64,000 bases of DNA from Sparassis latifolia (taxonomy: Eukaryota; Basidiomycota; Agaricomycetes; Polyporales; Sparassidaceae). Below are positions 42,364 through 61,308 of this stretch, piece after piece. Both the position numbers and the translations under genes were made by a program. The notes under the pieces are model-generated. The model was not told the DNA's origin. It did not search any database and saw only the letters and a list, made by a program, of their open reading frames with translations. The stretch spans positions 1,550,001-1,614,000 of the forward strand of contig CM031559.1 in assembly GCA_018466975.1 (NCBI GenBank). The letters are read 5' to 3'. The number at the start of each line of letters is the position of its first letter. The first letter of the stretch is position 1.

Positions 42364-44133
42364 TTAGATGGCTACCGACTCCCATTTCTCGTCCAGAGCA
42401 GCTACTATCGCAGGGAGCGATAGATCATGGGCCCACTTTGTTGCCAACTGCTCACTCCAACCAACGATAGCAAGTAACGCTCGAAGAAGTAGCGCTCGCT
42501 TGTAAACCGAGTACTCGCCATTAAAGCAATACTCGTGTTCAGGGGAAACTTGCCGACATTCGAAACCCCACTTCACCTTGCCGTTTGAAACGCTGTAGGT
42601 GGGAGCATAGGAATAGACGACGATACCGTTCTTGTCGTATACGATGCCAAACACAACCATGTGACTGGGAATCGCTGCATTCGCCAGTGGCTGCGGAATG
42701 CATGAAATGTCAAACAAGACAAGGCTAGTAATATTGTGGAACAAGGACGCACATCCCATTCTTTCTTCCAAGTATTTTCGCTCGGATTTCCGTATCTGGT
42801 TATTAAATCCATGATGAACAACTCCAGTGTGGGCTGAAATGCCCAAGCAAGCTTTAATGCTGGCCGCGGTAACCTTACTGGTGACTCGTCGGACGGAGTG
42901 GCACTGCCTGACGGAGCATCTTTTTGAGGCACACGATTTTGTGGCCTTCTAGCCTCCCCTGCAAGTACAAGAGGACGACAAAACTTGATCCCTGGTAGTC
43001 GTTCAACCGAGATCTGACAAGCAACGTCGGGCCGTGAGTAGGAGCCAAAGCAACCCAGTATCGTAGGATACTTCAAAGCAGTAGACCTGCAATGTGTATA
43101 AAGAAACTGACACTGTCAATAAAGTGGACAACTCACGAATATGTCGTGCATCCTCGAATGTTGAATATTCCTGTAAGAATAGAGCCAATTTGGCGTTCTA
43201 CGTCCATCTCCGAGATTGTGTTTTGAATGCCGGGGAATGCGAGAAGCTTCAACACGGTCGTCTCCATGCTTAGAACTCTAGAAGAATGCGCGTTGTGCGA
43301 ATCATACAAGCGTAGATCTAGCGCTGGCCCTGCGCTTGCGGTCTGGTCAGCGCTGAGATCAAAGAGAGGAGGCTGGGGATTCTGTGGGCTCTGACGCGTG
43401 ATATGTTCCTCATTGGCGTACTCTAGGTAGAGGAGTAGGGCTTTACTGAGCATTTGAGATGGGCCCACTTCATTAACTCCGAGGTTTGTATCCTGGATGC
43501 AGGTTTCAATACATGCAGACAACTTCGTGATATGTCTTACTCCAAGCCACTCTTCCGATATCTTGATGCTACTGCTGCATGCAATACTTGTTTCTCCCAT
43601 TAGAAGCTTGTTAATATGGCGTGTAACAAGAGACCCGGTCCCTCGACTCGAGTCCCCAACGTGAGAGTTATAGAACGACCACCTGTACACCTTCTCCAAT
43701 TGGCTCTGGGATACATTACTTCCGGATACATCAGCTCGTGATTCAAGAATCTATCCAAAGTGTTAGACCAACCTGGCTGTAAGATAGCTCTTTCTCGAAC
43801 TTTTCACCCTCCGTTTCATATCATATGGGATGCCAATGTCCTCCAACCAATTCTGGATCCGAACCTCCCCAAAGAGCGCATTTCTCTGCTCAAATTGTGC
43901 TGGCCATGACAAAGTACCTTTCGATTCCGGAACTTCCTTATATCTGTGTTTAGACTGCCAGTGATCTACAATGACCCGCTCCGGGAGAGCTAGCATGTCC
44001 TCAATCGGGCAGGTCTTCACACTGCACGATGGGGTGTTGATATTATTCAGTCGAGCGAGTCAATTACTGTAAGCGACTAGTGACTCACCGATAGGTTAGC
44101 AGCCTTAGACCGTGCTTTAGAACATGGAAGCAT
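42364..44133 (-). CDS. Tandem paralogue A, unknown function
   Basis: First of three related minus-strand genes. Exon blocks correspond one-to-one with copies B and C. They are a short N-terminal exon (MLPCSKARSKAANLS), ALPERVIVDHW...RIQNWLEDIGIPYD, NVSQSQLEKVYRWSFY, DTNLGVNEVGPSQMLSKALLLYLEYANEEHI...DVERQIGSILTGIFNIRG, KYPTILGCFGSYSRPDVACQIS...IKFCRPLVLAGEA, and finally IPSHMVVFGIVYDKNGIVVYSYAPTY...FECRQV to the stop. Typical introns are 50-60 nt. Protein length is about 430 aa. There is no signal peptide, membrane segment or known catalytic motif, and I do not recognise the family. Conserved Cys, Trp and Tyr residues in the last 100 aa suggest a folded domain. Start and exact junctions are less certain than the exon blocks. 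Confidence 0.65.
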
Positions 44134-44546
44134 TATTCAAAAGGTCTGCTAGGACAGTGAAAAGGCGAACCGGTCGTGAGACTCACCGTCACAAATCGGA
44201 GAGGTAATAAGTGAGTAAGCGACGGTAGCCGAGCTCGAGGTATCAGCTACCAGCCAGTTCCCCCGGTTATGTACATACAGCATTTTCAGAGTCGGGGCTC
44301 CGATGAAGGACCTTCGCGAGTAAGGAGAACATGCCAGAAAAACAGAGCGAACATCAAGTCTTTCCTGAATCCACTGTTGGTACTCCAGCGGATCTTGCGG
44401 CATGATGGTGAGTGACTCAAGCTCGTCCAAGTACTAGTGTCAACCTTGGATGTCACAACAACGCCACAAAGTATTGCTTTACTCGTCATACTACTGTATC
44501 GTACACGAATACAATCATAACAGACACAGAAATGGATAAGCAATCA
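44134..44546. other. Spacer between paralogues A and B
   Basis: Similar in sequence to the spacer 46310-46705 (e.g. GTGAAAAGGCGAACCGGTC, ACCTCGAGCTCGG), so it belongs to the duplicated unit. An open frame (minus, MPQDPLEYQQWIQERLDVRS) is partly conserved in the second spacer and might be a 5' exon. The second copy has a stop, so this is doubtful. Confidence 0.45.
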
Positions 44547-46309
44547 TCAAAAGGCAACAGACCCCCATTTCTCGTCCAGTTCAGCTATTATCGGAGGAAG
44601 GGTCAGATCATGAGCCCACTTTGCCGCCAACTGATCGCTCCAACTGACAATGGCAAGTAATGCTCGAAGAAGCAGCGCTCGCTTGTAAACCGAGTACTCG
44701 CCATTAAAGCAGTGCTCGTGTTCAGTTGAAACTTGCCGACACTCAAAACCCCAGTTCACCTTGCCATTTGAAACCTTGTAGGTGGGAGCGTAGGAATAGA
44801 TGACGATGCCGTTCTTGTCGTATATGATGCCAAATACAACCATCTGACCGGGAATCGCCGCCTTTGCCTTTGCCAGTGGCTGTGGAATGGCATGAAATGT
44901 TAAATGAGATGAGGATAGCAATATTGTGGAACAAAGACGCACATTCCATTCTTTCTTCCAAGTCTTTCCATCGGGGTTTCTGTATTTAGTCACCAAATCA
45001 ACGATGAACAACTCCAGCGTGGGCTGAAACGCCCAGGCGAGCTGTGATGCTGGCCGCGGTAACCTTACCGGTGACTCGTCGGACGGAATGGCACTGCCTG
45101 ACGGAGCAACTTCTTGAAGTACTGGACTTGGCCGCCTTTTTGCCTCCCCTGCAAGTACGAGGGGGCGACAGAACTTGATGGTCGGCAGTTCTTTACCTGA
45201 GATCTGACAGGCGGCATCAGGCCGTGGGTAGGAGCCAAAGCAGGCGAATGCAGTAGGATATTTCAAAGCAGTCGACCTGCAGTGTGTATGAAGAAACTGA
45301 CATTGTCAATAAAGCGGACAACTCACGAATATCTGGTGCATCCTCGAATATTGAATAATCCCGTAAGAATAGAGCCAATGTGGCGTTCTACGTCCATCTC
45401 CGAGATTGAGTCCTGAGTGCCAGGGAATGCGAGAAGCTTCAGTATGGTCCACTCCATGCTTAGAGCTCGAGACGAGTGTGCATTGTGCGAATCATACAAG
45501 CTCAGATCTAGCGTTACCAGCACTGGCTCCGCGCTTGAGCTCTGGTCACCTGTGAGATCAAAGGGAGGGGGCAAGGGCATCTCATTGTTGATATGTTCCT
45601 CATTGGCATACTCTATGTAGAGACGCAGGGCCTTACGAAGTATTTGGGATGGGCTTGCTTCATTAACTTCGACATTTGTATCCTGGATGCATGGATTCAA
45701 TAAAAGCAGACAACATTGTCATATGTCTTACCGTACACCACTCTTTTGGTATCTTGATGATGCCGCTGCGCGCAGAACTTGCTCGTACGATGAGAAGTCT
45801 TTCAATATGGTCTGTAACGAGTTGGCCGATCCGTTGACTGGAGTCCCCAATGTAATTGCTGTAGAACTTCCAATTGTACACCTGTTCCAATTGGCTCTGA
45901 GACACATTACTTCCGGACAGATTGGCTCGCGATTCATGGATATATCAAAAGTGTTGGACTAACCTGGCTGTAAGATACCCCGAACCCTTCATCGTAGGTT
46001 GAGTGTTGTATGGGATACCGTTATCTTCAAACCACATCTTCATCCCAACTTCTTCGGAAAGTGCATTCCTCCGCTCCGACTGCACCACCTGCCACGGGAA
46101 AACTCCTTTCGTTTCGGAAGCTTCTTTATATCCAAGCTTCGACTGATCTACGATGACCCGCTCCGGGAGAGCCAGCATGTCCTCGCTGGGGCCAGTGATC
46201 ACACTGCGCGATAAGGTCTTGATGCTATTCAGTCGAGCAAGTTAATTACTGCAAGTCACTGGTGACTCACCGATAGGCTAGCAGCCTTAGATAGTCCTTC
46301 GGAGCCCAT
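44547..46309 (-). CDS. Tandem paralogue B, unknown function
   Basis: Second member of the tandem set and the closest to copy A at DNA level. It has the same order of exon blocks. They are MGSEGLSKAASLS, ALPERVIVDQSKLGYKEASETKG...KMWFEDNGIPYN, QSQLEQVYNWKFYSNYIGDSSQRIG, DTNVEVNEASPSQILRKALRLYIEYANEEHI, MDVERHIGSILTGLFNIRG, KYPTAFACFGSYPRPDAACQIS...IKFCRPLVLAGEA, and GQMVVFGIIYDKNGIVIYSYAPTYKVSNGKVNWGFECRQV. The last exon is intact to the TAG region, as in A. I saw no disabling change in the blocks examined. Function is unknown. Confidence 0.65.
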
Positions 46310-46705
46310 GGCACACAGAAGCAATGTTCAGAAGGTCTGCCAGGATAGTGAAAAGGCGAACCGGTCATAAGACTCACTGTCACAGCAGCAGTAAAACGGA
46401 GAGCCGGTGATAAGTGAGGAGTAAGAGACGGTAACCGAGCTCGAGGTATCAACTACCAGCCAGTAATGTGCATACTACAGTCTACTCCCGTAATGTAGAG
46501 TGTCTTCAGAGTCGGGGCTTCGACGAAGGACCTTCGCAAGTGAGGAGAACATGCAGAGCGAACATCAAGTCTTTCCTGAGGCATGATGGTGAAGCTCGTT
46601 CAAGTACTAACCTAGGATGGGCCGTCACAACAACGCCACAATGTATTGCAAGTTTACCCGTACACGAATACAATCATAACAGACACAGGAATGGGTAAGC
46701 AATTA
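46310..46705. other. Spacer between paralogues B and C
   Basis: Homologous to 44134-44546. It contains CCAGGATAGTGAAAAGGCG, the counterpart of the sequence into which the mobile element inserted upstream of copy C. Confidence 0.5.
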
Positions 46706-48473
46706 TCAAAAGGCTACGGACTCCCATTTCTTGTCCAGAGCAGCTATTATCGGGGGAAGTGACAGATCATTCACCCACTGCGTTGTCAACTGGTCACTCC
46801 AAGTGACGACAGCGAGCAATGCTCGAAACAGTTGCGCTCGCTTGTAGACTGTATAGTCGCCATTGAAGCAATCTTCATATTCAGTTGAAACCTGCCGACA
46901 TTCAAACATCCACTCCACCTTGCCATCCAAAACTTTGTAGGTGGGCGAATAGGAATAGATGACGAGGCCGTCCTTGTCGTATACGATGCCAAATACAACC
47001 ATATGACTAGGGATTGGTGCGTATGCCAGTGGCTGTGGAATCACGTAAATGTTAAACCAGACAACGATGGCAATATTGGGGAACAAAGACGCACATCCCA
47101 TTCTTCCTTCCAAGTCTTTCCACCGGGATTTTTGTATTTGGTGATCAGTTCCACGATGAACAGCTCTAGTGCAGGCTGGAACGCCCACGCAAGTTGTGAC
47201 GCTGGCCGCGGTAACCTTACCTGCGGCTTACCATGCGGATTGGCACTGCCTGATGGAGCATCTTCTTGAGGCACATAATTTTGCTGCTTTTTCGCCTCTC
47301 CTGCAAGTACAAGGGGACGACAGAACTTGATCCCTGGTAGTTGTTCAGCCGAGATCTGACAGGCAGTGTGAGGCCGCGGGTAGGAGCCAAAGCAACCCAG
47401 TATAGTCGGATATTTTAAGGTAGTGGACCTGCGGTGTGTATGAAGAAACTGACACCGTTAATAAAGCGGAAGACTCACGAATATCTGGTGCATCCTCGAA
47501 CATTGAATATTCCTGTAAGAATAGAGCCAATGTGGCGTTCTACGTCCATCTCCGAGATTGTGTTTGGAGCACCGGGGAATGCGAGAAGCTTCAACATGGT
47601 CCACTCTATGCTTAGAGCTCCAGAAGCATGCACATTGTCTGAATCATAGAGGGACAGATCTAGTGTTGACTTATCACTGGTACCCTGGTTGCCTTTGAGG
47701 TCAAAGGGAGGAGGCGTGGTTTTATGTGAACCTTGATACTTGATATGTTCCTTGTTGGCATACTCTAGGTAGAAAAGCAGGGCTTTACGGAGCATTTGAA
47801 ATGGGCTCGGGTTACCAATCCCGATGTTTGTATCCTGCATGTATGGTTTCAATAAATGCAGACAATATAATAATATGTCTTACTGCGAGCCACACGTCCG
47901 GTATCTTGATGGTGCCGCTGCGGGCGACACTCTTTCTATCCAAGAGAATTGCCTCGATATTGTCCATGACGAGTCTCAAGGGTGCTGATTCTCCAGCACG
48001 TCCCTTGAAGAATGTCCAACGGTACACCTTCTCCAATTGGCTCTGAGACACATTACTTCCGGATGGATTAGCTCGTGATTCATGAACCTTTCTAGAAGTG
48101 TTAGACTGACCTAGCTGTGAGGAAATTATTCCTAGAACTCTTCTTCGTGGGTGTAAAATCGTACGGGATAGCATTTTCTTTAAACCACGCCTCGATTCCA
48201 ATTTCTTTAAAGAGCTCATTTCTCAGCGTGGCTTTCTGTTCGCGTTTGGGAGCTCCCTTCGCTTTCACAGCTGCATTGTGTCCGAGCTTCGACGGATCTA
48301 CGGTGACCCTCTCCGGGGGTTCCCGTTGTGTCTCCAAACTGGGGCGAGTCGCCGTAATGGTCTATAGCACTGATGCGCTATTGATGTTATTCTGTTGTGG
48401 AAATGATTAAGGAACTCACCGGAAGTACAGGAGCATTAGACCGTCCTTCAGAACCCTTTGCGCGTGGTGGCAT
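46706..48473 (-). CDS. Tandem paralogue C, unknown function
   Basis: Third and most diverged member. Exons join in phase from ATG 48473 (MPPRAKGSEGRSNAPVLP) through TITATRPSLETQREPPERVTVDPSKLG, NVSQSQLEKVYRWTFFKGRAGES, DTNIGIGNPSPFQMLRKALLFYLEYANKEHI, KYPTILGCFGSYPRPHTACQISAEQ, and WKEEWD spliced to PLAYAPIPSHMVVFGIVYDKDG, ending KKWESVAF. The N-terminal region is richer in Lys/Arg than in A and B. The start codon lies only 37 bp from the left end of the 12.4 kb mobile element, so its original promoter has been displaced by about 12 kb. Whether it is still expressed cannot be told. Confidence 0.68.
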
Positions 48474-48511
48474 ATTTCGGGCAGTCGTTCGGAGGGTGTA
48501 CTAGGATTGTA

Positions 48512-48626
48512 CATCAGGAAAACCCCACTTTTCCTTAAGAGGACACTTAAATAACTTAAATGGACTTATGGTCCTTATTTAAGGACATAAGGACAAAAAG
48601 GGCATAAGGCATATTCCCTGAGTGTC
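48512..48626 (+). repeat. Left terminal segment of the KDZ element (shared with the MITE)
   Basis: About 115 bp nearly identical to the left half of the small element at 61096-61210, including GGACATAAGGACA and ending at CCTGAGTGTC. Confidence 0.9.
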
Positions 48627-48889
48627 AGGCCTATATGTCATATTGATATATCAAAGAATGATAAGTTTAACTCATACCTGATACAACAGCAGTAGTAGCC
48701 ACAATGGGCTCGAGCTTACAGGTTCTGATATATCAGCCTGCGCGTATGACAAATCAATCTGCTCTTCCTCTTCTGGATAGCTTCGGCCGCGTGGCCCGGT
48801 CCCCTGGATCTATCGATGATCTGATCTCACAATGAGGCTTCTGTAATCTTAGATATGGATCTGGTCCCGCCGGTTCCTTCGCCGCCGCC

Positions 48890-48960
48890 TCTTACCATAA
48901 TTGGCTGCCGCCTCTTCTCTTAATTGGCCGTCGCCTCTTCTCATAATTGGCTGCCGCTTT
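48890..48960 (+). repeat. Three short tandem repeats
   Basis: About 2.6 copies of a unit close to ATAATTGGCTGCCGCCTCTTCTC, about 25 bp each, inside the element's left side. Confidence 0.7.
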
Positions 48961-49494
48961 TTGCTCCTGCTCGTTGGCTCCGCTATCCTGCTCCTAAACT
49001 GTACCCTAACTGTCTCTCTCGTGTATGCTGTGCGCCTGTCATTCATTCTTAGGTGTGTTCACTGTGTTTGTTCCTGCCGGACCGTAGGCAGTCTGCTCAA
49101 TGCCGGCTATGTAATGTCTTCACGGTTTGAAGTTTGTAAACAAGTTATGGTACAAAGGATGATGTATCAGCTAGTGGTAGTCATTGTATTTTAATGTATC
49201 ACGCATGGCCTGCCGTGCTAAGTGTCCTGTGCCTGTTGTATCTACCGAAGATTGATACATCAGTCTCCCGAGAATTTTACTAAGTATGACTGTAGGCACA
49301 TCTGCCTTGCGTGAATTACTCAAAGTTGCATGCCTTTTTACAATGAGCACGGTCAGCAAATGTATATATTCTTTCTTGAAAGTATCTACTTGAAGACGTA
49401 CTAAACTACGAACAGTAGTGAAATCACCAAGAAGGACTGTTACCATCGCCAAAGCTATGTTACTTGCGCTCGCTATCTCACTTGTGTCATGCAT

Positions 49495-51923
49495 TTACCT
49501 TTTTCTCTTCATCGCCGGCCCACTGAGACATACGCGTCAGTACCATCAACACTATGAATAACCAACTGTACATACCTGTGCTGCCCATCTGCAACCCGTT
49601 TCCCTCTGCGCAATGTTGCGGGCTCAGATTCTCTATTCTCCCATCCTGCAGCAACGATGGGTTGCTGCTTCCCACTGCGGGACCAATTGGCATTGGCCTG
49701 CTTGGGTGCAACGCGTGTTCGAGCAGGATGGCCTGATTTAGAAGACGGAGTACCAGACTCCATTTCCGCATTTGCTGCTTCTGTTAGTGCTGGAAGGACA
49801 GAGTTAAGGTGCTTCCGAGTAGCTGGACAGCGCTTGTGCACTGGTACTGGAGTCGCATCTTCATCTGCAGCCGAGCTGGCCACCTCTATGCATGCCGATG
49901 GAGCAGCGGTTGTCAGTACAGGGAGGACAGTCAATGGTGTAGGTGCAGATTCATCTGAAAAAGAGGGCAAGTTGGCAGCCAGAGACAACAAAGATGCAGT
50001 CAGATCAGCCAGAGATGGTGATATCGAAGATGATTCATGCGGCGACAAGGACGGAACGGATCCAGCTCCTGGAGATGAGGCAGCCAGATGGCAATGTCGA
50101 CGAGGGTGTGGATTGAACTAGAGAGGAAGATGGGGCTTCCGGCAGTAACTGGGGGTATGAGGGAGAGCGCAATGCAGACATAGAAGAGCAGGTTGGATCA
50201 GTATTCGACGATGATACGCCAGGGTCAGCAACGTTCAGCTGACTGCTACCGGGACCTGATGGTGCATCAACGTGCATGAGAGGCTGGAAATTGAGCGCAC
50301 CTGTCACAGGACTGATGGGAACCATCCAATCCAGTTCGATGCCAAGCATGGCATTGTCAAGAGAGATTGGCTGGAGGTCTGTGTCCAGGTCGAATGCAGG
50401 TGCCGGGATGTCGAACTGCCAGGCTGCCAGGTTTGGTGCCCATGGCAGTGTGGCATCTGCAGATGCGGATAGATGGTTTTGGGAATGGGAAGATGCAGGA
50501 ACGGGTGAAGCAGGAGCAGGGATGGAAGGTGAAGGAGCCAATGAAGACTGGAGAGCATCGTTGACAGTTGTGGGAGGACGCCCATCCTCGGATGACGGTG
50601 GTGGTCCCACTGTTGTGACAGGTATGTGAGCATTGCTGACATCTGCCGATGCAGTGTCGGACACTGGTGTGCCCTGATCCTGGCTGGGCGATGGGCCTGA
50701 GGATGCCTGACCACGAGTAATAGGGTCCTCAGCATCGGGACTGTCTTCCATTGTGTAGCGGAGGTCCTCAAGATTGAGCGTGATCACCTCCGGAGGTGGC
50801 TCTGATGAGCCTGGAGTGAGCGATGAAGAGAGTGCGTGCCTTTGACAGTCAGCCAGAGCTGATATCCAAGTTAGTCGATGCTGAACATAAAGAGGACACA
50901 CAAAACTCACGATATGACATCGCCATAAACTGTCCGAACGGCTCCATGAACTGCGTTTCAAAGTCAGGTATGGTGTCACTAAACTTAAGTGCACTTGAAC
51001 TGTCCCCGGAGTGGAACCTAATGTGTCATTAGTATAGCCTTGTAAGCACGAAGAGATAATGACTTACACCATCGACCGGAGGTTCCCTCCATCTTCGGGA
51101 CTAGGTCCTCCCCCGAATACTGAGGATCGCCAACCGGTCGACTTCAACATTGCACCAAGAAATTGATCGAATGCAGCCGGCATACAGTCCAGCATTCTGT
51201 GAATTTACGTGAGGTGAGCAGCATGGAGAGAGTTGAATGTAAAACATACTTTTGGTATTCTGCGGGAGAATACTCACCCTGCAAATGCGCCTCCTCAGTC
51301 TGCACCTCCTCAGCCTCACGCTCTGCCTTCTTTCGCTCCACATCTGCAATGATCTCTGCCTTAACTTCGGGTGTCTCTGCATCATATGTTGCCTGTGTCA
51401 AACACTGGACGATGGGCAGTGCCTCACCCTTTTTGAGGTTCTTCTCCTTGATCTCCGAGTCGATGTCCTTCTTGATCTTCTCCTTGTAATACTTGTGTGA
51501 GTATGCTTCGACAACTTGTGGAAGACGCTTGACCAGGACAGCACCCTTCGGAATGAAGTTTTTGAGGATGGAGGCCACAGTCTTGTCAGCAGAGCATCCC
51601 TTTGGTTTGCGATTGTTATACCAGTTATACAGTTGCTATATCCATGTCAGATTCATTCTAATTGGGTGTTAGTATGAACACACCTTCTGCTGCTTCGCGA
51701 TGGCCTGTGTCAGCTCTGCATCTTGTTCTGGTGTCAGCTGCACCATCGGATTGATGGCCGGAAACAGATGGGCACACTCCTGGAACTGTGTGTCCCATTC
51801 GGTGAACAACGTTCTGTAGAAGGTCTGTAGTTTCTTGCACTTCTGATGGTCAAGGAAGCGTGGCAACTGTTCTTGCAGCCACTCTAACTCTGTAGTGTTG
51901 GCCCATGTCGGTGGAGCCATCAT
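49495..51923 (-). CDS. KDZ-element cargo gene, unknown function
   Basis: Multi-exon gene. It starts MAPPTWANTTELEWLQEQLPRFLDHQ, continues LTPEQDAELTQAIAKQQK and splices to QLYNWYNNRKPKGCS. A highly charged helical stretch follows (KYYKEKIKKDIDSEIKEKNLKKG...ERKKAEREAEEVQTEEAHLQ), then MLDCMPAAFDQFLGAMLKSTGWRSS and FSDTIPDFETQFMEPFGQFM. The C-terminal half is Pro/Ser/Thr-rich and disordered, ending with basic SGPAMKRKR before TAA at 49495-49497. The WYNN block next to Lys/Arg and the basic tail suggest a nuclear, possibly DNA-associated protein. That is inference, and no known domain is recognised. One exon boundary near 50040 (between the ORF ending VLVAA and MSPHESSS) is unresolved and could be an intron or a frame break. 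Its position inside the inverted repeats makes it transposon cargo. Confidence 0.65.
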
Positions 51924-52276
51924 GAAGTGCCATCAGATGGTGAGCTCATGAAGACAAGAGGTGGGAAAAGACATACTGGACAAGTATTTGATGTGCGTCC
52001 ATGAGCTGGGGCCGAATACATTGAGGTTAAGTGACTTTGCGAGCATGTACTTGATGCGTGGTGGGTGGCAGTTGTAGGTTAAGTGGCATGCATGACACTG
52101 CATGAAGTGCCCTGATGAGTTGATGCTGGACGGAGCTGTTCGACAATGCCTTGATTGGGCTAACCGAATGTCCCTGTCCTGAACGTTATATAATAGTGGC
52201 CAACTCGTCGATGTCGGTAGTTCTGCACTCACCTCTCTTGTCTCTTGTCTCTCTCACTAGTCTCATCTCTGCACTG

Positions 52277-53276
52277 ATGAAGGTTCCCCAATCACCTCCA
52301 GAAGCCCAAACCTGCGATACAACTTCCGGATACGATTGGACGGCGATCCGACTCGCTTTGGAATACACTCTGGCATGGGTCATTGCATATGAAAGCAGTA
52401 CATACCTCGAACATTGCTCACAAGGTGATGCTGATTTGTCAACAGATAACTTCTGTTAATGTCGACAACCCAGGCACAGTAAGTCATAAGTTCATCCTTA
52501 AGCATGTGTAAGTACTAACCTTCTAACAGACAATGCTGAGCTCGTCACTGAGCTTGTCATGGCCCTTGGAGACAGGGGAATGACCCACCCTGTTGACAAT
52601 AATGGCGAGTTCATCATGGACTCCGACGAAGAGGACATCGACTTGCACCCCGTGGCTGCCGCTGCTCCCACTGCCACCGTCGCTGCTCCCATCGTTGCCA
52701 CTCCTGCTGCTGCTGTGCCGGTGTTCACTGCACCTGCAAACACAGGTGTCCTTCCAGCTGTTCCCACTGCCATTGCTCCTGCTGGCCCTGCCGCTCCCAC
52801 AGTCGTTGCTCCCCCTGCCCCTGCCGCTCCTGTAGTCATCGCTCCCCATGCCCCTGCCACTCCCACAGTCGCCGCTCCTGGCCCTGCCATCCCTGTCGGC
52901 CCTGCCACTCCTGTGGTCATTGCTCCAGTGGGTGTCATTGGTCTGGCGGTTCCTGGTGTTCCTCTAGTGGCTCCTGGATTTGATATACCCCCTGGCTTTG
53001 CAGCCGCATCGGGAGTTGATCTCCCATATCCGACTCAGCCGAATGACATTGCACCGTTCTATTGCATCACCCGTGGATGCATCATCGGAGTTTACACCGA
53101 CTGGTAAGTTCCTTTGTCACATTGTGTTAATATTTACTCATGTCTCATCCAGGAGCCTCGTTGCTGCATACGTGCATGGTGTTTCGGGTGCATTCTGCAA
53201 GAGGCACCCTACGTACGCTGCGGCCATCAGCACCTTCAACACCGCCCTCACCCATGGCACTGTGCAGGTGGTTTGA
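52277..53276 (+). CDS. Protein with C-terminal viroplasmin/RNase H1 N-terminal-type domain, 281 aa
   Basis: Three exons in phase: 52277-52424, 52530-53103, 53153-53276. The N-terminal ~70 residues are helical (DYDWTAIRLALEYTLAWVIAYES-like, then ELVTELVMALGDRGMTHPVDNNGEFI) and acidic (MDSDEEDIDLHP). About 120 residues of Ala/Pro/Val-rich repeats follow (VVAPPAPAAPVVIAPHAPATP). The last ~60 residues, FYCITRGCIIGVYTDW|SLVAAYVHGVSGAFCKRHPTYAAAISTFNTAL, have the pattern of the small nucleic-acid-binding domain found at the N-terminus of RNase H1 and in caulimovirus viroplasmin: an aromatic-rich strand, G-x-YxDW, VxGVSGAxxK, then a Tyr/Phe helix. No catalytic RNase H domain is present, so the protein may bind RNA/DNA hybrids or dsRNA without cutting. 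It lies inside the transposon, on the same strand as the transposase. Confidence 0.7.
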
Positions 53277-53813
53277 TGGGTGCTGTTGACATCGTGTCAA
53301 TGTGTGGCAGGGTCGGGCTCCAGTTGATGTTGTCTTTTTGTCTTGAATATTCACCTGACTGACTTCTTGGTAGCGCCAATATGCACGTAAATACTCTTGC
53401 GTACTACAGCCACTGTACTTACGTTCTCCATCATCATTCTATATCCCTCACTCCTGCGTCGTTTATGGACAATCGCGATGTGATTTTATAAAATGCATAC
53501 TTTTTTGCGAAACACGTGTAAGAGCATTAAAATATACTTCAAATTCCGGGGTTTTGGCAGTCCAGGCCTCACTCTGAACCTCTTTTGATGGGATGGCGTG
53601 CTAAGTACTTCACACAGAATGCTAAAAAAAGCGCCATCCATAAGCAAAAACAAGTATACAATAAGTCAGCTAAGTACGCAAGGATCATTGCTATACTATG
53701 CAGAATCTCACACCATGTATAGAGGCCACAGCACAAGGAGTCAACAAAACTGACGGCAATACATTGCATGCGAGGAACTCTACACCACACCATTCACTGA
53801 GTCACTCCCTGAC

Positions 53814-54134
53814 ATGCTGCCGATCTTCATGCAATATGCGCGTCATGACTTCCCACTGAAGTTTCGATCAGTCATTGCGGAAAGCCCCCACCTCAGTTTA
53901 TGGATGCACCCATACACCTTTGACCCTCTGAGCCACACCTGGACCTTGAAGCTTTTGCGGGGCATAGTGAAACAGATCCATCTGTTCCAGTGGGACCAGA
54001 TGGTCGCACGGGGACAGGAGCGCCACTACGAGAGCTGGCAGGAGGAAGAGGGGTGGGACGCCAGAGCTGAGTGTGCACGACAGGAGCTCTGCACGCGGAT
54101 CGCAGCATGGAGGAGCGCCAGTGACAGCACATGA
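53814..54134 (+). CDS. Small hypothetical ORF within the element, 106 aa
   Basis: Starts MLPIFMQYARHDFPLKFRSVIAE and is rich in Trp and charged residues (LFQWDQMVARGQERHYESWQEEEGWDARAECARQEL). The composition is protein-like, but no family is recognised and no exon joins were found. It could be a remnant of a larger gene or a chance frame. Confidence 0.3.
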   Translation: MLPIFMQYARHDFPLKFRSVIAESPHLSLWMHPYTFDPLSHTWTLKLLRGIVKQIHLFQWDQMVARGQERHYESWQEEEGWDARAECARQELCTRIAAWRSASDST

Positions 54135-54810
54135 GAAGATGAGTTGGGGGAGCTGTATTTGGAATGGGGGGCGAAGATAATCTGTTGCCTCAGCAAGGAA
54201 TTAGACATCAGGTGCAGAGGGATCTTTGCGTATAACGAGGCGCACCGTGATGGAGGATTACCATTCCAGTGTATGAATATGCGGTAGTGTAGACACAGAA
54301 TATATGATCGATGAGTTCTACTCCAGAAACCTGGACAGCAGAAGGCAATCATGAGGGATGGCAGTGAAGAGCACAGAAACCTCACGCCACAGATCTAGAT
54401 GGATTGGGACTTCGTACTTGAGCGTCACGATTGGCCTTACTCACAATCTCTGTTCTGCACCACTATTATCAGTCAAGTACTTATAGTTGCTAGTGTTACA
54501 TACACTAGTAACCTACCAACTCATCCACAATAAATTCTAACAGCTTGTGACTTCTCATCCGTTCGAGCCACCTAGATTAGTTTGGACAGAATTTCAGTAG
54601 GACACTTATCCACTTGCTGATTGGTCATTTGATTGGGGCACGTGAAAAGGTCTTCACATGATTTGGCAGAGTTTGAACCTTCATCCAGGTACTATATCAG
54701 ACTGTCCTCCTTTGTATCCCTTCTCTCTTCATGACCATCATGACCGGTGGTTATCATTGCCCACTTTTCACTGGGAGGGCCCTCTTGTCCCTCAAGGTAT
54801 GTCTTCATTG

Positions 54811-55090
54811 GTTGGTCTCTTGCTTCGGGCTCTGATCGAGGTGAGTATTTGTTGGTTGGTTTGTCCTTGCATGTTCTAATAGAATGGTGACAGGTGTTGT
54901 TGTCGGTGGCCGCGGCAGCTCGTTGCAGCTGAGATATGATGCACGTCAGTTGGTCTCTTGCTCTGAGCTCTGATTGAGGTAAGTGGTCATCGGTTGGTTT
55001 GTCCTACTGTGTTCTAACAGAATGGCGACAGGTGTTGTTGTCGGTGGCCATGGCAGCTCGCTGGTTGTAGCTGAGATATGATGCACGTAT
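54811..55090 (+). repeat. Two-copy tandem duplication, about 140 bp each
   Basis: Copy 1 is about 54811-54948 and copy 2 about 54949-55090. Both contain TTGGTCTCTTGC, GGTTGGTTTGTCC, ACAGGTGTTGTTGTCGGTGG and GAGATATGATGCACGT. Confidence 0.85.
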
Positions 55091-56580
55091 GTTAATTTTT
55101 TTTTGGCTCCATGTTATGCGGACTGATGTTACTCAGGGTTTCATCATTCAGGGAAGGCTCTCGTGGTGTCATTGACATCTTGCGGATTGTGGATGACTAT
55201 GAGGTAAGTAATGTCTACTCGCCTGATGGTGGTTCTGTCGCGGCATCTCAGATCTGACATATGGTAGTAGCAATGTGTCAGTTGTGTGCCGGCTTCGTGA
55301 TGTAAGTACTCGGGGACTGAGAAGATATATACTGCACATCCAATCTGAAAAGGATGTGTTGTCCTGTATGCCAGTTTACTGATTGAGACTCATTTAGGCT
55401 GCGAGGGTGTGCAATTCGGAGAGAGTGACACAATGTCACTTCAGATGGAGATAGCGATGTCGTGGTCCATGTCGAGGGTGACACTGTGCCACGTCGAGAG
55501 AGCGATGTTACACTAGGCTGAGATTTGTCGATGAGGATAGATGTTGCCCCAGGTTGATAGTGGAGTGACATTTCACCAGGGTAGTGCGAAGGTGTGGTAC
55601 GTGTAGAGAGCGATGTTATGCCAGGCCGAGGCGGAGCGATATTTTCCCCAGGTAGTGCGAAGGTGTGCGATGTTGAGAGTGGGCGATGCGACCGTAAGGT
55701 TGGGAGCACGACGTCACTCTAGGTCGGGAGTATGGGTGGTGGGAGCGACTGCATCAGGCGGGGAGGTTGGCATTGCATGAGGTCGAGAACATGACATTGG
55801 CCAGGCTGGAAGCATGCATCGGGTTTAGGGTGCAACGGTCAATAAGGTCAGTAGAGTAATGTATAGTCGAGAATGTAGTGGCTTTGCAGGCTGAACGTCA
55901 TATGTGCGCAGTCGTCCGAGGCAGATATGTAAAGGTATCTGATAATGTAAATGTCATATGGAGTTTTAGGGTGATACTTAGCGGTGTCCTGCGATTGGCT
56001 AGTCTTGTTGGAACTCAATAGATGCTCAACTGTGCATTTAGCTCAAGCCTATCCTGACAGCTGCATGCTGCACCTGAAATCTTTGGCCCTTATTCAAGTC
56101 ACTCCATCATCCAAGTGTGTATACGACAAGGTCGGGCACCTTCTCTCCATCATCCAAGTGTGTATACAATGAGGTCGGGCATCTGGCTGACTGACTATAG
56201 ATTCTTGTCGACGACTTTCGGATGTTACCCAAATGTCAAGGTTTAGTGCATAGCTGAAGTTCGCAACGGGAGTATGATATATCAAGCCCTGGTCACTAGC
56301 ACATCTTCCGGATTTGCTGTACATTATTTGTAACATCGGTAGGGGTCTCTGACACCATGCACTGTCACGCAGTGAGAATACCCATCCGATAGACTTTTTT
56401 TTTAGCAACAGCTGGCACCATTTCTTTTCTCAACGCTCATTTTTTCTGCGTGCCCCTCTATGTTCTGCCAGACTTATCAACAAAATGAAATATTGGACGC
56501 ACTTGAAGTCTTTCTGCCATGCAGCTGTCTCCATAATGCTGAAGAAGAAATGAGCCCTAAATTGCGAGGAGTACATTGTC

Positions 56581-59500
56581 TTGGATGGCGATGCTGATGG
56601 CACCAACAACAACATCCACTATTTGCAGGACATTGTACATCACACAGAGTACGTGTCTGGAGGCAACAAAGTTTCCACCAGAACGTCTTTCTACACCGCT
56701 TCCACTACGAATACGGGTGCCCAGAGCACCCCATCATTTGATTTTTCCGAGCTCTGTGGAACGACAAACTCTGCTATCATAGACGATGATGAGGACATCG
56801 ATATTTTTGACCTGGACCCTCAATATCTAGAAGACATTAAGAATTTGCTTGCATGTAAGCCTCGTCGGCATGGTGCAGGAGTAAGTCTCTGCTATTTCCT
56901 CTCTGGCGGCTTTTTGATATTGGGTCATTAGGATAATCCTCTCCGGGAATGGATCCCAGAGATTGACAATTATCTGTCCAAAATGCTGTGCTTGGAGGGG
57001 CGCTGCGGCTATGACTCTGGGTGGTGCCAATTTTGCGAGGAAGGCTCAGCCATGGTTCGCAGCCAGGACTGCTTCGACCTCGCCATTTACTGCTGTACAT
57101 GTGAAGTCAATTTCCACAAGCGCACACCTTTTCATCGTGTGCAGGTGCATCGGCTTTACCATTCTTTTAATGAGGTGTAGCTGATCGCTTGCTTGCAAAA
57201 TACAGACTTGGACTGGATCCCACTTCCAACCAAACTCATTGAAAAATCTTGGATTGCGAGTCCAACTGGGTCATGGACTCACTTATAGATTCGAGCACCG
57301 ATGTCATCTGCCTGTGCGAGCCACAGGGGATGATTTCCTGGTGCTAAATACTAATGGGATACATGAAATCGGCCTGGATTTTTGCAGCTGCGAGACAGCT
57401 AAAGTGCACGCTGTGCAACTCCTTCGTGCACGGCTATTTCCAGCCACATCAACAAACCCCAAGACTGCTGCTACTTTCCATCTATGCTGATATGCGCACC
57501 TGCTGACTACTCAGTCGAAGACATCTGGCTACAAGTTCTACCAGAGTCTTGCCCGGCTCACTAATAATACTGACTGGCATACGAACGCCCAAGGTACATT
57601 GCATGCCAATCTACAATTCTCTACATTGCTAATGAGGTGTAGGATCGCTACCCTGCCTTCATGCGTATTATGCATATGTGGTGGCACCTGAAGATGCTGA
57701 AGTGAGCTGGTCGGGGCCATGATCCCGGTGGTGTGCGAGCGACCACTCCTGGGTCTTGCGTGGTTCTTTGCCCGGCCTGTCCCCACCCTGGAAAGAATTT
57801 GCGTCCAGACTGGGAGGAAGCTCCAGAGAATGAGAAGTGAGTTCTCAATCATTCATCTTGCCTATCACAGCCTGATAATTTACCTAATGGTAGATGGTTG
57901 TACCAGCTGTTTATTGGGCTCGATGCAAATTTCCACCTCAAATGCAAGAAGGTTTCCTCAGACAGTGTTGATTCCGGGCTGAATCATGGCTACACCTACT
58001 TCGTAGAGGAAAGGGCATACAAGAAATACCTCAGCATATACGACTCTCTTGTGACAGAAGAGCAGAGTATGTGCAACAACCATGATGCTGTCAAGTTAGC
58101 CAATATGAGGGGCTCGGTCACAGGTACAGCCGCAAGTGGTGTCGGTGCCATGACGTGTACGCGGCATGATATGAGGCTGCCTTGCAGTGTCAGTGATCTC
58201 CAGAAGGGAGAATGGTAAGCTAATGTTCATGGTGGTCTATATTCTGGTGCTGATCATTGTGCAGGTATGTCAACATGGATTACATGTTCTTCTCGACCTT
58301 GGCCAATGTCCCATCAAAGGATGTTGTCATCTCCTACGACATCGCTTGTCAGTGGCATAAAAACTTGTGGAAATGGTACCAGCTCTACAAATCTTGCCCA
58401 TTCAAGAAAGATGATCACGACTTTGTCTTCCTAATCCCGAAATTCCATATCAATGCCCATCAGAAGTCATGCCAAAATAATTACTCATTTCACCACACCT
58501 TGCATGTTGGTGAGATGGACGGCGAGGGTGTCGAGCGACCATGTTCAGACTCGAACCTATATTCCTCAAGTACAAAGGAGATAGGCCCCGGTTCACGATG
58601 CAATTTCCTGGATGATGCATTCACAGATTATAATTGGAGAAAAGTTTGCGGAATGCGTGAGTGCTGTATCAAGATCCTTTGAATATCTCCAGGCTAATAA
58701 ATGTGAAGCCACACTTTTTTTGGTGAAGATTAAAGCTGCATTACCTGAGCACAATAAACAAGTCTTGGCATTTGCAGAACTTAATGATGCGATGGTGCTG
58801 GAGGATTGGAACTTATGGAGAAACACTGTCAAAACATGGGAGAAGGACTCATCCAAACTGAACCCTGTTGTTGCGACCTGTCCTAGTAAGTAGTTTAATT
58901 GCGGTGTGCAATGTCTGTCTGACATTCATACACATTCAGCGGTGACTCAAGCAGCTGTGCACCTGCAATTAGCCAATGAGGAGGCTGTGGAGTTAGAGAA
59001 TGGTGTGCAAAGTGGGATGGTGCATGACCTGGTATCCCTGAGCGTGATGATAATGGCCGGAATCGAGCTCCAGGAACAGCAGTAAGCACCAGTTATTGTA
59101 ATTCAGCTCCTGTTCTCATACATTCATCTTAGATATCACCTTCGGCACGACATAGCGACCCTCGGGGCACATTCCACAGATCTCCAATGTGCCAAGATGA
59201 TTGAGCGGCGAAATGCACTATGTCGCAAGATAGAGGCTTGGACATACATCCAGCAGCTCTATATTCCTGCTACCGTGGCTCTGCACACGCGAGCTGTGGC
59301 TGCTGCCGCTAAGGAGGTTTTCACGCAGGATATGGCACTCTATTTGCCATTGGAACTGCCCGCAGTGACACCTTGTGACTCTCACCTTCAGACATATGAA
59401 TTGCATCTGCAGATTGCCCAAGCACATGACGCCTTAGAAGATCTGCGACGGCATCTATGGCTGCATATGCATATGTACAAATTCAAGGACCATTTTGTTC

Positions 59501-60213
59501 ATGGACAACGATACCTCATGCGAGCAAAGACATCCATCGCGCATATTCAGGAGAAAGTCAATGCAGACGCAGCCCGCTATTGCGGTGCCTTCAATGCAAT
59601 CAATTCACTGTCCGTCTTGCTCAATGAACCTTCAAGACCCCACAGCTTGGCCCTGCTGCAAGAGGAAGACATGTGGGGAATGACGGAGGCTGGATTGGGT
59701 GAGACCCAGAGCTGCAAGAAGCTGCCTTGGATATGGCGGACACATGGTGTGGGGGACACCAGCACGACGGACACCGGTGTCAATGAAGGTTCGTCGTTCC
59801 GTTTCTCTGTTGATGAATGATCTGAAAGCTTTCAGATTTTTTCAGAGCTCCATATCAAGTGGTGCAATGCCCGTGCTCAGGCTTATCGCTGGATTGAGGA
59901 ATGCTACCAGTTACCTGAGGAGATGTGGAGAGTCATCAGTTTTCATAATTGGATGTGGCGGTGGTGGATGGAGCAAATTGACACGATTCCAGCACGATCG
60001 CCTGAACATTTAGAAGGTGCCACTGCATATGCATACCATCAAGCAAAAATCTGGGAGTCTATGAGAGATCACTGCAAGTCTGTATGGCACTGTGTGCCTG
60101 CCTGGCTGCAGGCGGGAGGCGACGTTACCGTAGCTGTGGATTCCGCCGAGGTTACCCTTCCAGAAATGGGTCTGGTGATTGGACCTATGGACATTCTTCC
60201 ACCGCGCACATAA
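56581..60213 (+). pseudogene. KDZ transposase with CxC2-like cysteine cluster, disrupted
   Basis: The protein-level signature is clear. DLDPQYLEDIKNLLACK is followed by a cysteine cluster (LEGRCGYDSGWCQFCEEGS...CFDLAIYCCTCEVNFHKRTPFHRV), the CxC2-type module attached to KDZ transposases. VLNTNGIHEIGLDFCSCETA...VQLLRARLFPAT and AGRGHDPGGVRATTPGSC come next, then the catalytic region: LFIGLDANFHLK, SGVGAMTCTRHDMRLPCSV, YVNMDYMFFSTLAN, ISYDIACQWHKNLW, PKFHINAHQKSCQ and GEMDGEGVER. The C-terminal helical part (MIERRNALCRKIEAWTYIQQ, CNARAQAYRWIEECYQLPEEMWRV) ends at 60213. TGA codons at 57488-57490 and 57703-57705 interrupt conserved blocks. The junction near 57591-57644 and the one near 58655 do not splice in frame. 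The gene is therefore probably inactive. No clean ATG start was found; 56581 is only where the open frame begins. Confidence 0.85.
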
Positions 60214-60791
60214 GCTAGCATGTCCGCTTCTCTCGTGGGTACCATTCCGGCATCTGCCCTTTAGCAGGTTAATATCAGACAGGTCCGCGGATTTCTGCCC
60301 ATAGCTTCCAGCAGTTGTACCCCTTTTTGCAGGTCTCCCCAGACACTCAGAAGATGTTCCTCGGTGGCTGAATGGTATAACATGTAGCATTGTGCTCTGT
60401 TGATATTTTTGTACAAATATGTTGATTTTTGTGTGACATTCTCTAAATGGAAACCTGTTGCGACATATGGAACTGAATAACAAATCTACGACAGAACGAA
60501 GGCGGGTGGTGCGACAGGGCGCGACAGGAAGGTGGGATTTTCTCGCACGATCCAGACCGAATCTTAGAGATCTATGAGATCCCGACATCCTACCAGATCT
60601 ACCAAAACAGCGGACAAGCAGGGAGGACCGGGAGGATGTCAGCCACCTAAGGGAGAACAAACATGGCATAGAAGGGACTGTTGAGGACCACAGAATGATG
60701 TATCAGAGCCTGTAGTAGTTATCACCATCAATGTATCAGTCCCTTGTTCTTGTGACCATACTTGATATATCAGTATGCCAGGGACAGGTGT

Positions 60792-60896
60792 GAGTGTCTG
60801 AAATTCAACTTATTTGAACACTTATGGCCTTAAATAAGGGTTGTCAGATCCAAAAGTCTAAATAAGTCCCTAAGAGAAAGTTGGGTTTTCCTGATG
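60792..60896 (-). repeat. Right terminal segment of the KDZ element (shared with the MITE)
   Basis: About 105 bp from GAGTGTCTGAAATTC to TTTTCCTGATG, nearly identical to 61204-61308. Confidence 0.9.
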
Positions 60897-61095
60897 TAAA
60901 AGGCAGTGGCAGTAGTTGAAAGACTGAAAGACTCTCTACTGTAGTTCAAGGATGGTTATATATACTTCAGATGAGGTGAGAACATGCCACAAATTGCAAC
61001 AGTACTCAAGGACCCAGGCGATTCAGACTCGGAGTTTGTAGCCAATTGTGCCTCGTGGATATGACACTCTAGTTCAACTCTAGTTGTCTCCGAAA

Positions 61096-61308
61096 CATCA
61101 GGAAAACCCCACTTTTCCTTAAAAGGACACTTAAATAACTTAAATGGACTTATGATCCTTATTTAAGGACATAAGGACATAAAGGGCCTAAGGCATATTC
61201 CCTGAGTGTCTGAAATTCGACTTATTTGAACACTTATGGCCTTAAATAAGGGTTGTCAGACCCAAAAGTCTAAATAAGTCCATAAGAGAAAGTTGGGTTT
61301 TCCTGATG
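61096..61308. mobile_element. 213-bp MITE derived from the KDZ element
   Basis: It begins CATCAGGAAAACCCCAC and ends GGGTTTTCCTGATG. Its left half matches 48512-48626 and its right half matches 60792-60896. It is flanked by AA on both sides. It has no coding capacity and would need a transposase from elsewhere. Confidence 0.9.

What the first reader, a model, noticed from the sequence alone, without database searches (positions are those of the whole stretch)
48512..60896. A 12.4 kb KDZ transposon whose edges are fixed by two paralogous empty sites
The sequence left of the element (CTAGGATTGT) and right of it (AAAAGGCAGTGG ... AAGACT ... GAACATGCC) together resemble the continuous sequence upstream of paralogues A (GCTAGGACAGTGAAAAGGCG) and B (CCAGGATAGTGAAAAGGCG). 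The insertion therefore post-dates the gene triplication, and the boundaries are not guesswork. The apparent target duplication is only TA, shorter than the 8 bp I recall for Zisupton-type elements. This could mark a different KDZ subfamily.
Basis: partly seen in the sequence, partly recalled or inferred. Interest (0 to 1): 0.75.

Follow-up and report, generated by a model that had tools for sequence, protein, structure and literature searches.

The report
A transposon nested inside another transposon
What looked like one 12.4 kb mobile element with an unusual two-base footprint is really a common 213 bp element into which a 12.2 kb KDZ transposon jumped later, leaving an ordinary seven-base footprint.

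Summary
Window 48512-60896, in a Sparassis-like mushroom genome, is two nested transposons, not one. The outer ends (CATCAGGAAAACCC..GGGTTTTCCTGATG) and the TA duplication belong to a 213 bp non-autonomous family (217 exact end matches genome-wide; intact copy at 61096-61308). Its duplications are 2 bp, of varied sequence: 22 of 28 pairings, none longer. The KDZ element is the inner insertion, 48626-60790 (12,165 bp), flanked by TGAGTGT. Without it the two MITE parts align gap-free to the intact neighbour, 7 of 213 mismatches. Other copies share the inner ends; 5 of 6 two-ended copies have a 7-bp duplication, and three of these five exclude 8 bp. The 'TA-duplicating KDZ subfamily' is therefore refuted. 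The 7-bp duplication and CA..TG termini match published Kyakuja features. But the transposase is only 27% identical, over one exon, to a TET/JBP-linked KDZ copy in the same genome, so its place within KDZ is open. The paralogous empty-site idea holds on the left, moderately on the right, and dates the MITE. The transposase copy is broken by premature stops. Ordinary: a new family of a known kind.

The parts
48510..48511 (.). left 2-bp target duplication (TA) of the outer MITE
   Evidence: sequence; 2-bp duplications in 22 of 28 pairings of the family
48512..48618 (+). left part of the outer 213 bp MITE (CATCAGGAAAACCC end)
   Evidence: matches dozens of genomic copies at 96-99% (40 of 188 candidates scored); joined parts align gap-free to the intact copy, 7 of 213 mismatches
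48619..48625 (.). 7-bp target duplication TGAGTGT of the inner KDZ element, left copy
48626..60790 (+). inner KDZ transposon, 12,165 bp, termini CAGGCCTATATGTCATATTGATATATCA .. TTGATATATCAGTATGCCAGGGACAGGTG
   Evidence: same ends in copies with other flanks: 6 left-end and 15 right-end matches, window copy included
48645..48652 (.). subterminal palindrome GATATATC starting at the 20th base from the left terminus; further GATRYATC sites at 48727, 49161, 49254
   Evidence: 4 in the first 700 bp; shuffle mean 0.08, maximum 2 of 500 shuffles
50035..51923 (-). accessory gene of the element, several exons (my model), no Pfam domain; 6 of 7 protein matches are from Sparassis, the seventh is weak
   Evidence: 7990 candidates scored, capped; DNA conserved at 70-71% in the C14, C16 and C7 relatives
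53359..54305 (+). second conserved stretch of the element, function unknown
   Evidence: 67-71% DNA identity in the C14, C16 and C7 relatives
56554..60213 (+). KDZ transposase gene (CxC2, then KDZ over two exons; exon model mine); two in-frame premature stops inside the model, and a third stop just upstream of its start
   Evidence: PF18803 E 9.7e-27, PF18758 E 1.1e-17 and 2e-34; stops seen
60764..60771 (.). subterminal palindrome GATATATC, mirror position of 48645 (ends at the 20th base from the right terminus); a second site at 60697
   Evidence: 2 in the last 700 bp; shuffle mean 0.06, maximum 2 of 500 shuffles
60791..60797 (.). 7-bp target duplication TGAGTGT, right copy (also the start of the MITE right part)
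60791..60896 (+). right part of the outer MITE (GGGTTTTCCTGATG end)
60897..60898 (.). right 2-bp target duplication (TA) of the outer MITE
61096..61308 (+). intact 213 bp MITE copy with AA duplication; serves as the empty site for the KDZ insertion

Best explanation
Two insertions happened in sequence. First, a 213 bp MITE with CATCA..TGATG ends inserted upstream of the third tandem paralogue and duplicated TA (2 bp). Later, a 12.2 kb KDZ-superfamily cut-and-paste transposon inserted into the middle of that MITE, making staggered cuts that duplicated 7 bp (TGAGTGT). Shown: the nested geometry, both duplications, the shared inner ends in other copies, and the CxC2+KDZ domains. Inferred: that the KDZ transposase recognises the CA..TG termini and the symmetric GATRYATC subterminal repeats; that the MITE is moved in trans by a PlavakaB-type transposase; and that the window's KDZ copy is now inactive because its transposase reading frame has premature stops, unless another copy supplies the enzyme.
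For: The MITE parts without the insert and without one TGAGTGT give 213 bp, gap-free to the intact copy at 61096-61308, 7 of 213 mismatches. The same inner ends occur in copies with other flanks; 7-bp duplications TGAGTGT, ACATTCG, CTGAATG, TCAGAAG and GTTGCCT in 5 of 6 two-ended copies. The sister copy C8:312265-332527 matches the window element in segments of 84-90% (one 1 kb stretch at 68%; the outermost 130-150 bp at 96-99%), begins and ends at the inner termini, and shows no MITE sequence in the flanks read. Exact 2-bp duplications in 22 of 28 CATCAGG pairings, 0 of 28 with 3 or more. Subterminal repeats at both inner ends.
Against: One two-ended copy (C7:151090-163661) has no 7-bp duplication. 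In the window and in the C14 copy the duplication could also be read as 8 bp with a shared C; only the C8 sister, C16 and C10 copies exclude that. Of the 28 MITE pairings, 6 lack a 2-bp duplication; by inspection two of those 6 are not real pairs of this family (L005:2748-3054, L016:1501-1947). No autonomous Plavaka element with these ends was proven here.
Confidence: 0.97

Rival explanations
1. One 12.4 kb KDZ transposon with CATCAGG ends and a 2-bp TA duplication. The many 213 bp copies would be its internal-deletion MITEs, and TGAGTGT would be the microhomology at which the interior was lost.
For: The same ends occur on the 12.4 kb unit and on the MITEs; MITEs often arise by internal deletion (general knowledge).
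Against: The other five two-ended KDZ copies begin and end at the inner termini with no MITE sequence in the adjoining 30 bp, and four of the five have their own 7-bp duplications. A deletion microhomology would not recur as a locus-specific 7-bp duplication at other sites.
Confidence: 0.02
2. The KDZ element is Zisupton-type with 8-bp duplications; here TGAGTGTC, with termini AGG..GTG.
For: TGAGTGTC flanks both sides in the window, and CTGAATGC can be read likewise in the C14 copy; Zisupton makes 8-bp duplications (PMC12730594, passages seen).
Against: Three other copies (C8 sister, C16, C10) have 7 bp and the eighth base differs on either side.
Confidence: 0.02
3. The inner element is a true Kyakuja: same clade as the TET/JBP-carrying KDZ elements, having lost or never gained TET.
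For: 7-bp duplications and CA..TG termini, as published for Kyakuja (PMC12730594, passages); TET/JBP-linked KDZ genes are common in this genome.
Against: Over the main KDZ exon (about 120 aa) it is only 27% identical to one TET-linked KDZ copy (L098), further than from another KDZ group (31-39%). Published Kyakuja have no terminal inverted repeats, whereas bases 11-60 of the two ends here show imperfect inverted similarity (0 of 1000 shuffles reach it). Only one TET-linked copy could be read, and no labelled Kyakuja protein was available.
Confidence: 0.45

Closest known systems
Kyakuja (KDZ superfamily), as described from Laccaria bicolor in PMC12730594 (passages)
   Same: 7-bp target duplications, 5'-CA..TG-3' termini, KDZ transposase, agaricomycete host
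   Different: no TET/JBP match in this copy or in its sister; imperfect inverted similarity in bases 11-60 of the ends, whereas Kyakuja is said to have no TIRs; transposase 27% identical to a TET-linked KDZ copy in the same genome over one exon
Zisupton / Dileera and Cryptococcus KDZ1-KDZ3
   Same: KDZ transposase domain; KDZ1-3 are elements of about 9-11 kb
   Different: 8-bp duplications (Zisupton, a Dileera, KDZ1) or 4-8 bp (KDZ2/3); KDZ1-3 have terminal inverted repeats of 139-241 bp and CxC1 domains (PMC12730594 and PMC12810828, passages)
PlavakaB (CMCT clade), for the outer MITE
   Same: termini CATCA..TGATG and 2- or 3-bp duplications (PMC12730594, passage); 112 PF18759 Plavaka matches in this genome
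   Different: the 213 bp element has no gene; no Plavaka gene bounded by these ends with a duplication was shown here

Membership tests
KDZ transposons (superfamily) | KDZ transposase domain (PF18758) | tested here: met
   E 1.1e-17 and 2e-34 on two adjacent exons, both over the curated cut-off
KDZ transposons (superfamily) | associated cysteine cluster (CxC) | tested here: met
   CxC2 PF18803 E 9.7e-27
Kyakuja | 7-bp target site duplication | tested here: met
   5 of 6 two-ended copies; three of the five exclude 8 bp, two (window, C14) leave it open
Kyakuja | CA..TG termini | tested here: met
   CAGGCC..AGGTG in the 6 two-ended copies
Kyakuja | no terminal inverted repeats | tested here: inconclusive
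   11 of the first 20 terminal positions match between the ends, but bases 11-60 show imperfect inverted similarity with one gap, 0 of 1000 shuffles as good
Kyakuja | transposase falls in the Kyakuja clade | tested here: inconclusive
   27% identity to one TET-linked KDZ copy over one exon; no labelled reference proteins at hand
Zisupton | 8-bp target site duplication | tested here: not met
   of 6 two-ended copies, 2 (window, C14) can be read as 8 bp by a shared C, 3 exclude it, 1 has no duplication
PlavakaB (outer MITE) | termini CATCA..TGATG and 2- or 3-bp duplications | tested here: met
   CATCAGG..CCTGATG; 2-bp duplication in 22 of 28 pairings
PlavakaB (outer MITE) | Plavaka transposase between such ends (autonomous partner) | tested here: inconclusive
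   near C7:803744 a Plavaka gene lies between a one-mismatch left end at 800584 and a right end at 807880, but without a duplication; 6 of 112 Plavaka matches were read with 1.5 kb flanks, no such end in them

The most novel reading that the evidence does not exclude
The window family represents a CxC2-type KDZ lineage separate from the TET-carrying Kyakuja that nevertheless cuts with a 7-bp stagger and has CA..TG ends. In that case the 7-bp duplication is a property of a wider part of KDZ than reported.
Probability: 0.35. Interest if true: 0.35.

Novelty: new member of a known kind. Interest (0 to 1): 0.22.

Why it matters
It removes a spurious 'TA-duplicating KDZ' family and shows how easily a MITE hit by a larger transposon passes for one long transposon. 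Because the target is a high-copy repeat with an intact neighbour, the pre-insertion sequence is known closely. That gives an unusually clean view of the duplication and exact termini of a KDZ family without TET/JBP.

Tried and rejected
Internal-deletion origin of the MITE from the 12.4 kb unit: rejected because the other two-ended KDZ copies have no MITE sequence at their ends. Eight-bp duplication: rejected by three copies (C8 sister, C16, C10); the window and C14 copies leave it open. The autonomous partner of the MITE: six of 112 Plavaka matches were held with 1.5 kb flanks; no 14-mer end with up to 3 mismatches was in them, and looser 12-mers gave scattered matches that I judged chance. 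One locus on C7 has candidate ends but no duplication. A 5.0 kb pair of perfect ends on C7 (2480895-2485908) has AG against AA beside it and was judged not to be one element. TET/JBP cargo: Pfam scans of 17 of the 40 open reading frames listed gave no TET/JBP match, and none of 44 genomic TET/JBP matches lies in the window copy or its sister. Accessory protein: no Pfam family. Pfam on 7 of 10 listed open reading frames of the paralogue cluster: none. A MAFFT alignment of the flank pieces was not informative on the right side.

Papers. 'Plavaka' with 'MITE' gave 0; 'Sparassis' with 'transposable element' gave 12, 10 listed; 'Sparassis' with 'MITE' gave 7; 'Kyakuja' gave 12. For some searches I saw listings only, and by title none is about Sparassis transposons. 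Repbase and Dfam could not be searched, so these families may be catalogued there. No structure prediction was made.
Full report
What is there. The window lies in a 41.4 Mb fungal assembly (G000, C8:1550001-1614000). The element's accessory protein is 97% identical to a Sparassis crispa protein and 92% (over 89% of its length) to a S. latifolia one, so the host is most likely a Sparassis; the genome itself is unnamed. At 48512 and 60896 there are inverted ends CATCAGGAAAACCC / GGGTTTTCCTGATG with TA outside each. Inside are CxC2 and KDZ transposase domains.

The outer ends belong to another element. In a search with the first 300 bp, bases 1-115 match dozens of short genomic copies while bases 115-300 match only one other listed place (40 of 188 candidates scored). 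The exact 14-mer occurs 108 times on one strand and 109 on the other; the reversed-pattern control gives 0 and 0. A gapped pattern finds 76 copies with both ends 197-227 bp apart. One intact 213 bp copy sits at 61096-61308, 199 bp right of the 12.4 kb unit. Among copies held, 15 of 16 pairs with exact ends have a 2-bp duplication. Allowing two mismatches per end gives 28 pairings: 22 have a 2-bp duplication, 0 have 3 bp or more, and ten different dinucleotides occur (CA 6, TA 5, others 1-2 each). Two of the six misses are pairings I judge wrong by inspection (L005:2748-3054 has different ends; L016:1501-1947 overlaps a true pair). The TA in the window is one such duplication.

The KDZ element is nested inside. 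The intact MITE reads CCC TGAGTGT CTGAAATTC at its centre. In the window the same place reads CCC TGAGTGT CAGGCC... on the left and ...ACAGGTG TGAGTGT CTGAAATTC on the right. Joining the parts without the insert and one TGAGTGT gives 213 bp, gap-free against the intact neighbour with 7 mismatches. The insert is 48626-60790, 12,165 bp. Genome searches with its own ends find 6 left-end and 15 right-end matches, the window included. Six copies have both ends. Duplications: window TGAGTGT; C8:312265-332527 ACATTCG; C14:411357-422819 CTGAATG; C16:14162-26497 TCAGAAG; C10:4178036-4185682 GTTGCCT; C7:151090-163661 none. In the window and C14 copies an eighth shared C is ambiguous; the C8 sister, C16 and C10 copies exclude 8 bp. 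The nine right-end-only matches were not used in this count.

Why not one element with deletion derivatives. If the MITEs were internal deletions of a 12.4 kb KDZ transposon, other full KDZ copies should have CATCAGG ends. The five others with both ends do not: they end at CAGGCC..AGGTG, with unrelated flanks, and four of the five have their own 7-bp duplication.

The paralogous empty site. The left flank aligns to the spacers upstream of paralogues A and B up to the junction (A: 0 of 300 shuffles as good; B: 5 of 300). The right flank carries AAAAGGC at the junction and GAGAACATGCCA (A: 0 of 300; B, 10-mer: 11 of 300). Against it: with permissive gaps the right flank alone does not beat shuffles (A 75 of 1000, B 279 of 1000), the joined score with the right side shuffled is reached in 12 and 19 of 500, and MAFFT did not place the right flank at the junction. 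I take the empty-site claim as likely. It dates the MITE insertion after divergence from A and B; the KDZ insertion came later still.

How it probably works. The transposase gene (56554-60213) has CxC2 followed by KDZ over two exons. Exon borders are my own model, and the join between the third and fourth exons does not keep the frame. Symmetric GATATATC palindromes begin at the 20th base from each terminus, with further GATRYATC copies nearby: 4 in the left 700 bp and 2 in the right 700 bp against shuffle means of 0.08 and 0.06 (maximum 2 of 500 in each, so the right count alone is not beyond every shuffle). They recur in the relatives tested, except that the sister copy lacks the leftmost site. 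Bases 11-60 of the two ends also show imperfect inverted similarity (0 of 1000 shuffles as good). I infer that these are transposase binding sites. The transposase in this copy has two in-frame stops inside the model, which the sister copy lacks; a third stop lies just upstream of the model's start, where a related S. crispa protein (P0001) reads on; the sister was not checked there. Window and sister differ at 247 of 2568 aligned bases over the first 2.6 kb; 199 are transitions, 130 of them at CpG by a simple neighbour rule. This is what CpG-methylation decay would give, but methylation was not measured. The sister is 20.3 kb because about 8 kb lies between segments collinear with the window copy. 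The accessory gene (50035-51923, minus strand) is conserved in the C14, C16 and C7 relatives at 70-71% DNA identity. It had 7 protein matches, 6 in Sparassis, one weak elsewhere (only the 7990 candidates sharing most words were scored). It has no Pfam family.

Comparison with what is known. PMC12730594 (abstract and passages) reports 8-bp duplications for Zisupton and for a Dileera, 7-bp duplications with CA..TG termini and no terminal inverted repeats for Kyakuja, and CATCA..TGATG termini with 2- or 3-bp duplications for PlavakaB. PMC12810828 (passages) reports 8-bp and 4-8-bp duplications and 139-241 bp terminal repeats for Cryptococcus KDZ1-3. The inner element therefore has largely Kyakuja-like ends, apart from the imperfect inverted similarity, and the outer MITE PlavakaB-like ends. 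The transposase does not settle the clade. Over one exon it is 65-77% identical to seven relatives in this genome, 62% to a partial eighth (L007), 65-79% to three Sparassis proteins and 45-55% to the other 11 of 14 database proteins chosen from 120 listed. It is 27% identical to one KDZ copy beside a TET/JBP gene and 31-39% to eight loci of another KDZ group (eight rows there are seven places, since two loci overlap). PMC12730594 says Polyporales have only Kyakuja as TET-carrying transposons, which suggests that the TET-linked copy is the Kyakuja (that Sparassis is in Polyporales is recalled). That is a lead, not a test.

Verdict. The finding is a nested insertion of two known kinds of element. 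The claim of a KDZ subfamily with a TA duplication is wrong; the boundaries given are those of a MITE.

Noticed in passing
G000, e.g. C11:1293109-1296414, C8:740591-743897, C6:600299-603609: 44 TET/JBP matches genome-wide. By eye, the 12 best each have a KDZ match within about 3 kb on the same strand in the list, as expected for TET-carrying KDZ transposons; the other 32 were not paired.
   Followed up: partly
window 42364-48222: Tandem triplicated gene on the minus strand (three paralogues); none of 7 open reading frames tested matches Pfam.
   Followed up: partly
C8:312265-332527: Sister KDZ copy is 20.3 kb, with about 8 kb of extra sequence between segments collinear with the window copy. 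The extra content was not read.
   Followed up: no
L007 (C11:3854519-3857633): A 223 bp MITE with a TA duplication lies between two KDZ matches (3855546-3855737 and 3856158-3856379), apparently a nesting of the opposite order.
   Followed up: partly
one search list, e.g. C2:1723814-1724028, C5:383130-383344: A second MITE subfamily of about 215 bp shares the CATCAGGAAAACCC ends but has a different interior.
   Followed up: no
C7:800584-807880: A Plavaka gene (803744-804757) lies between CATCAGG-type ends without a target duplication; candidate autonomous partner of the MITE.
   Followed up: partly
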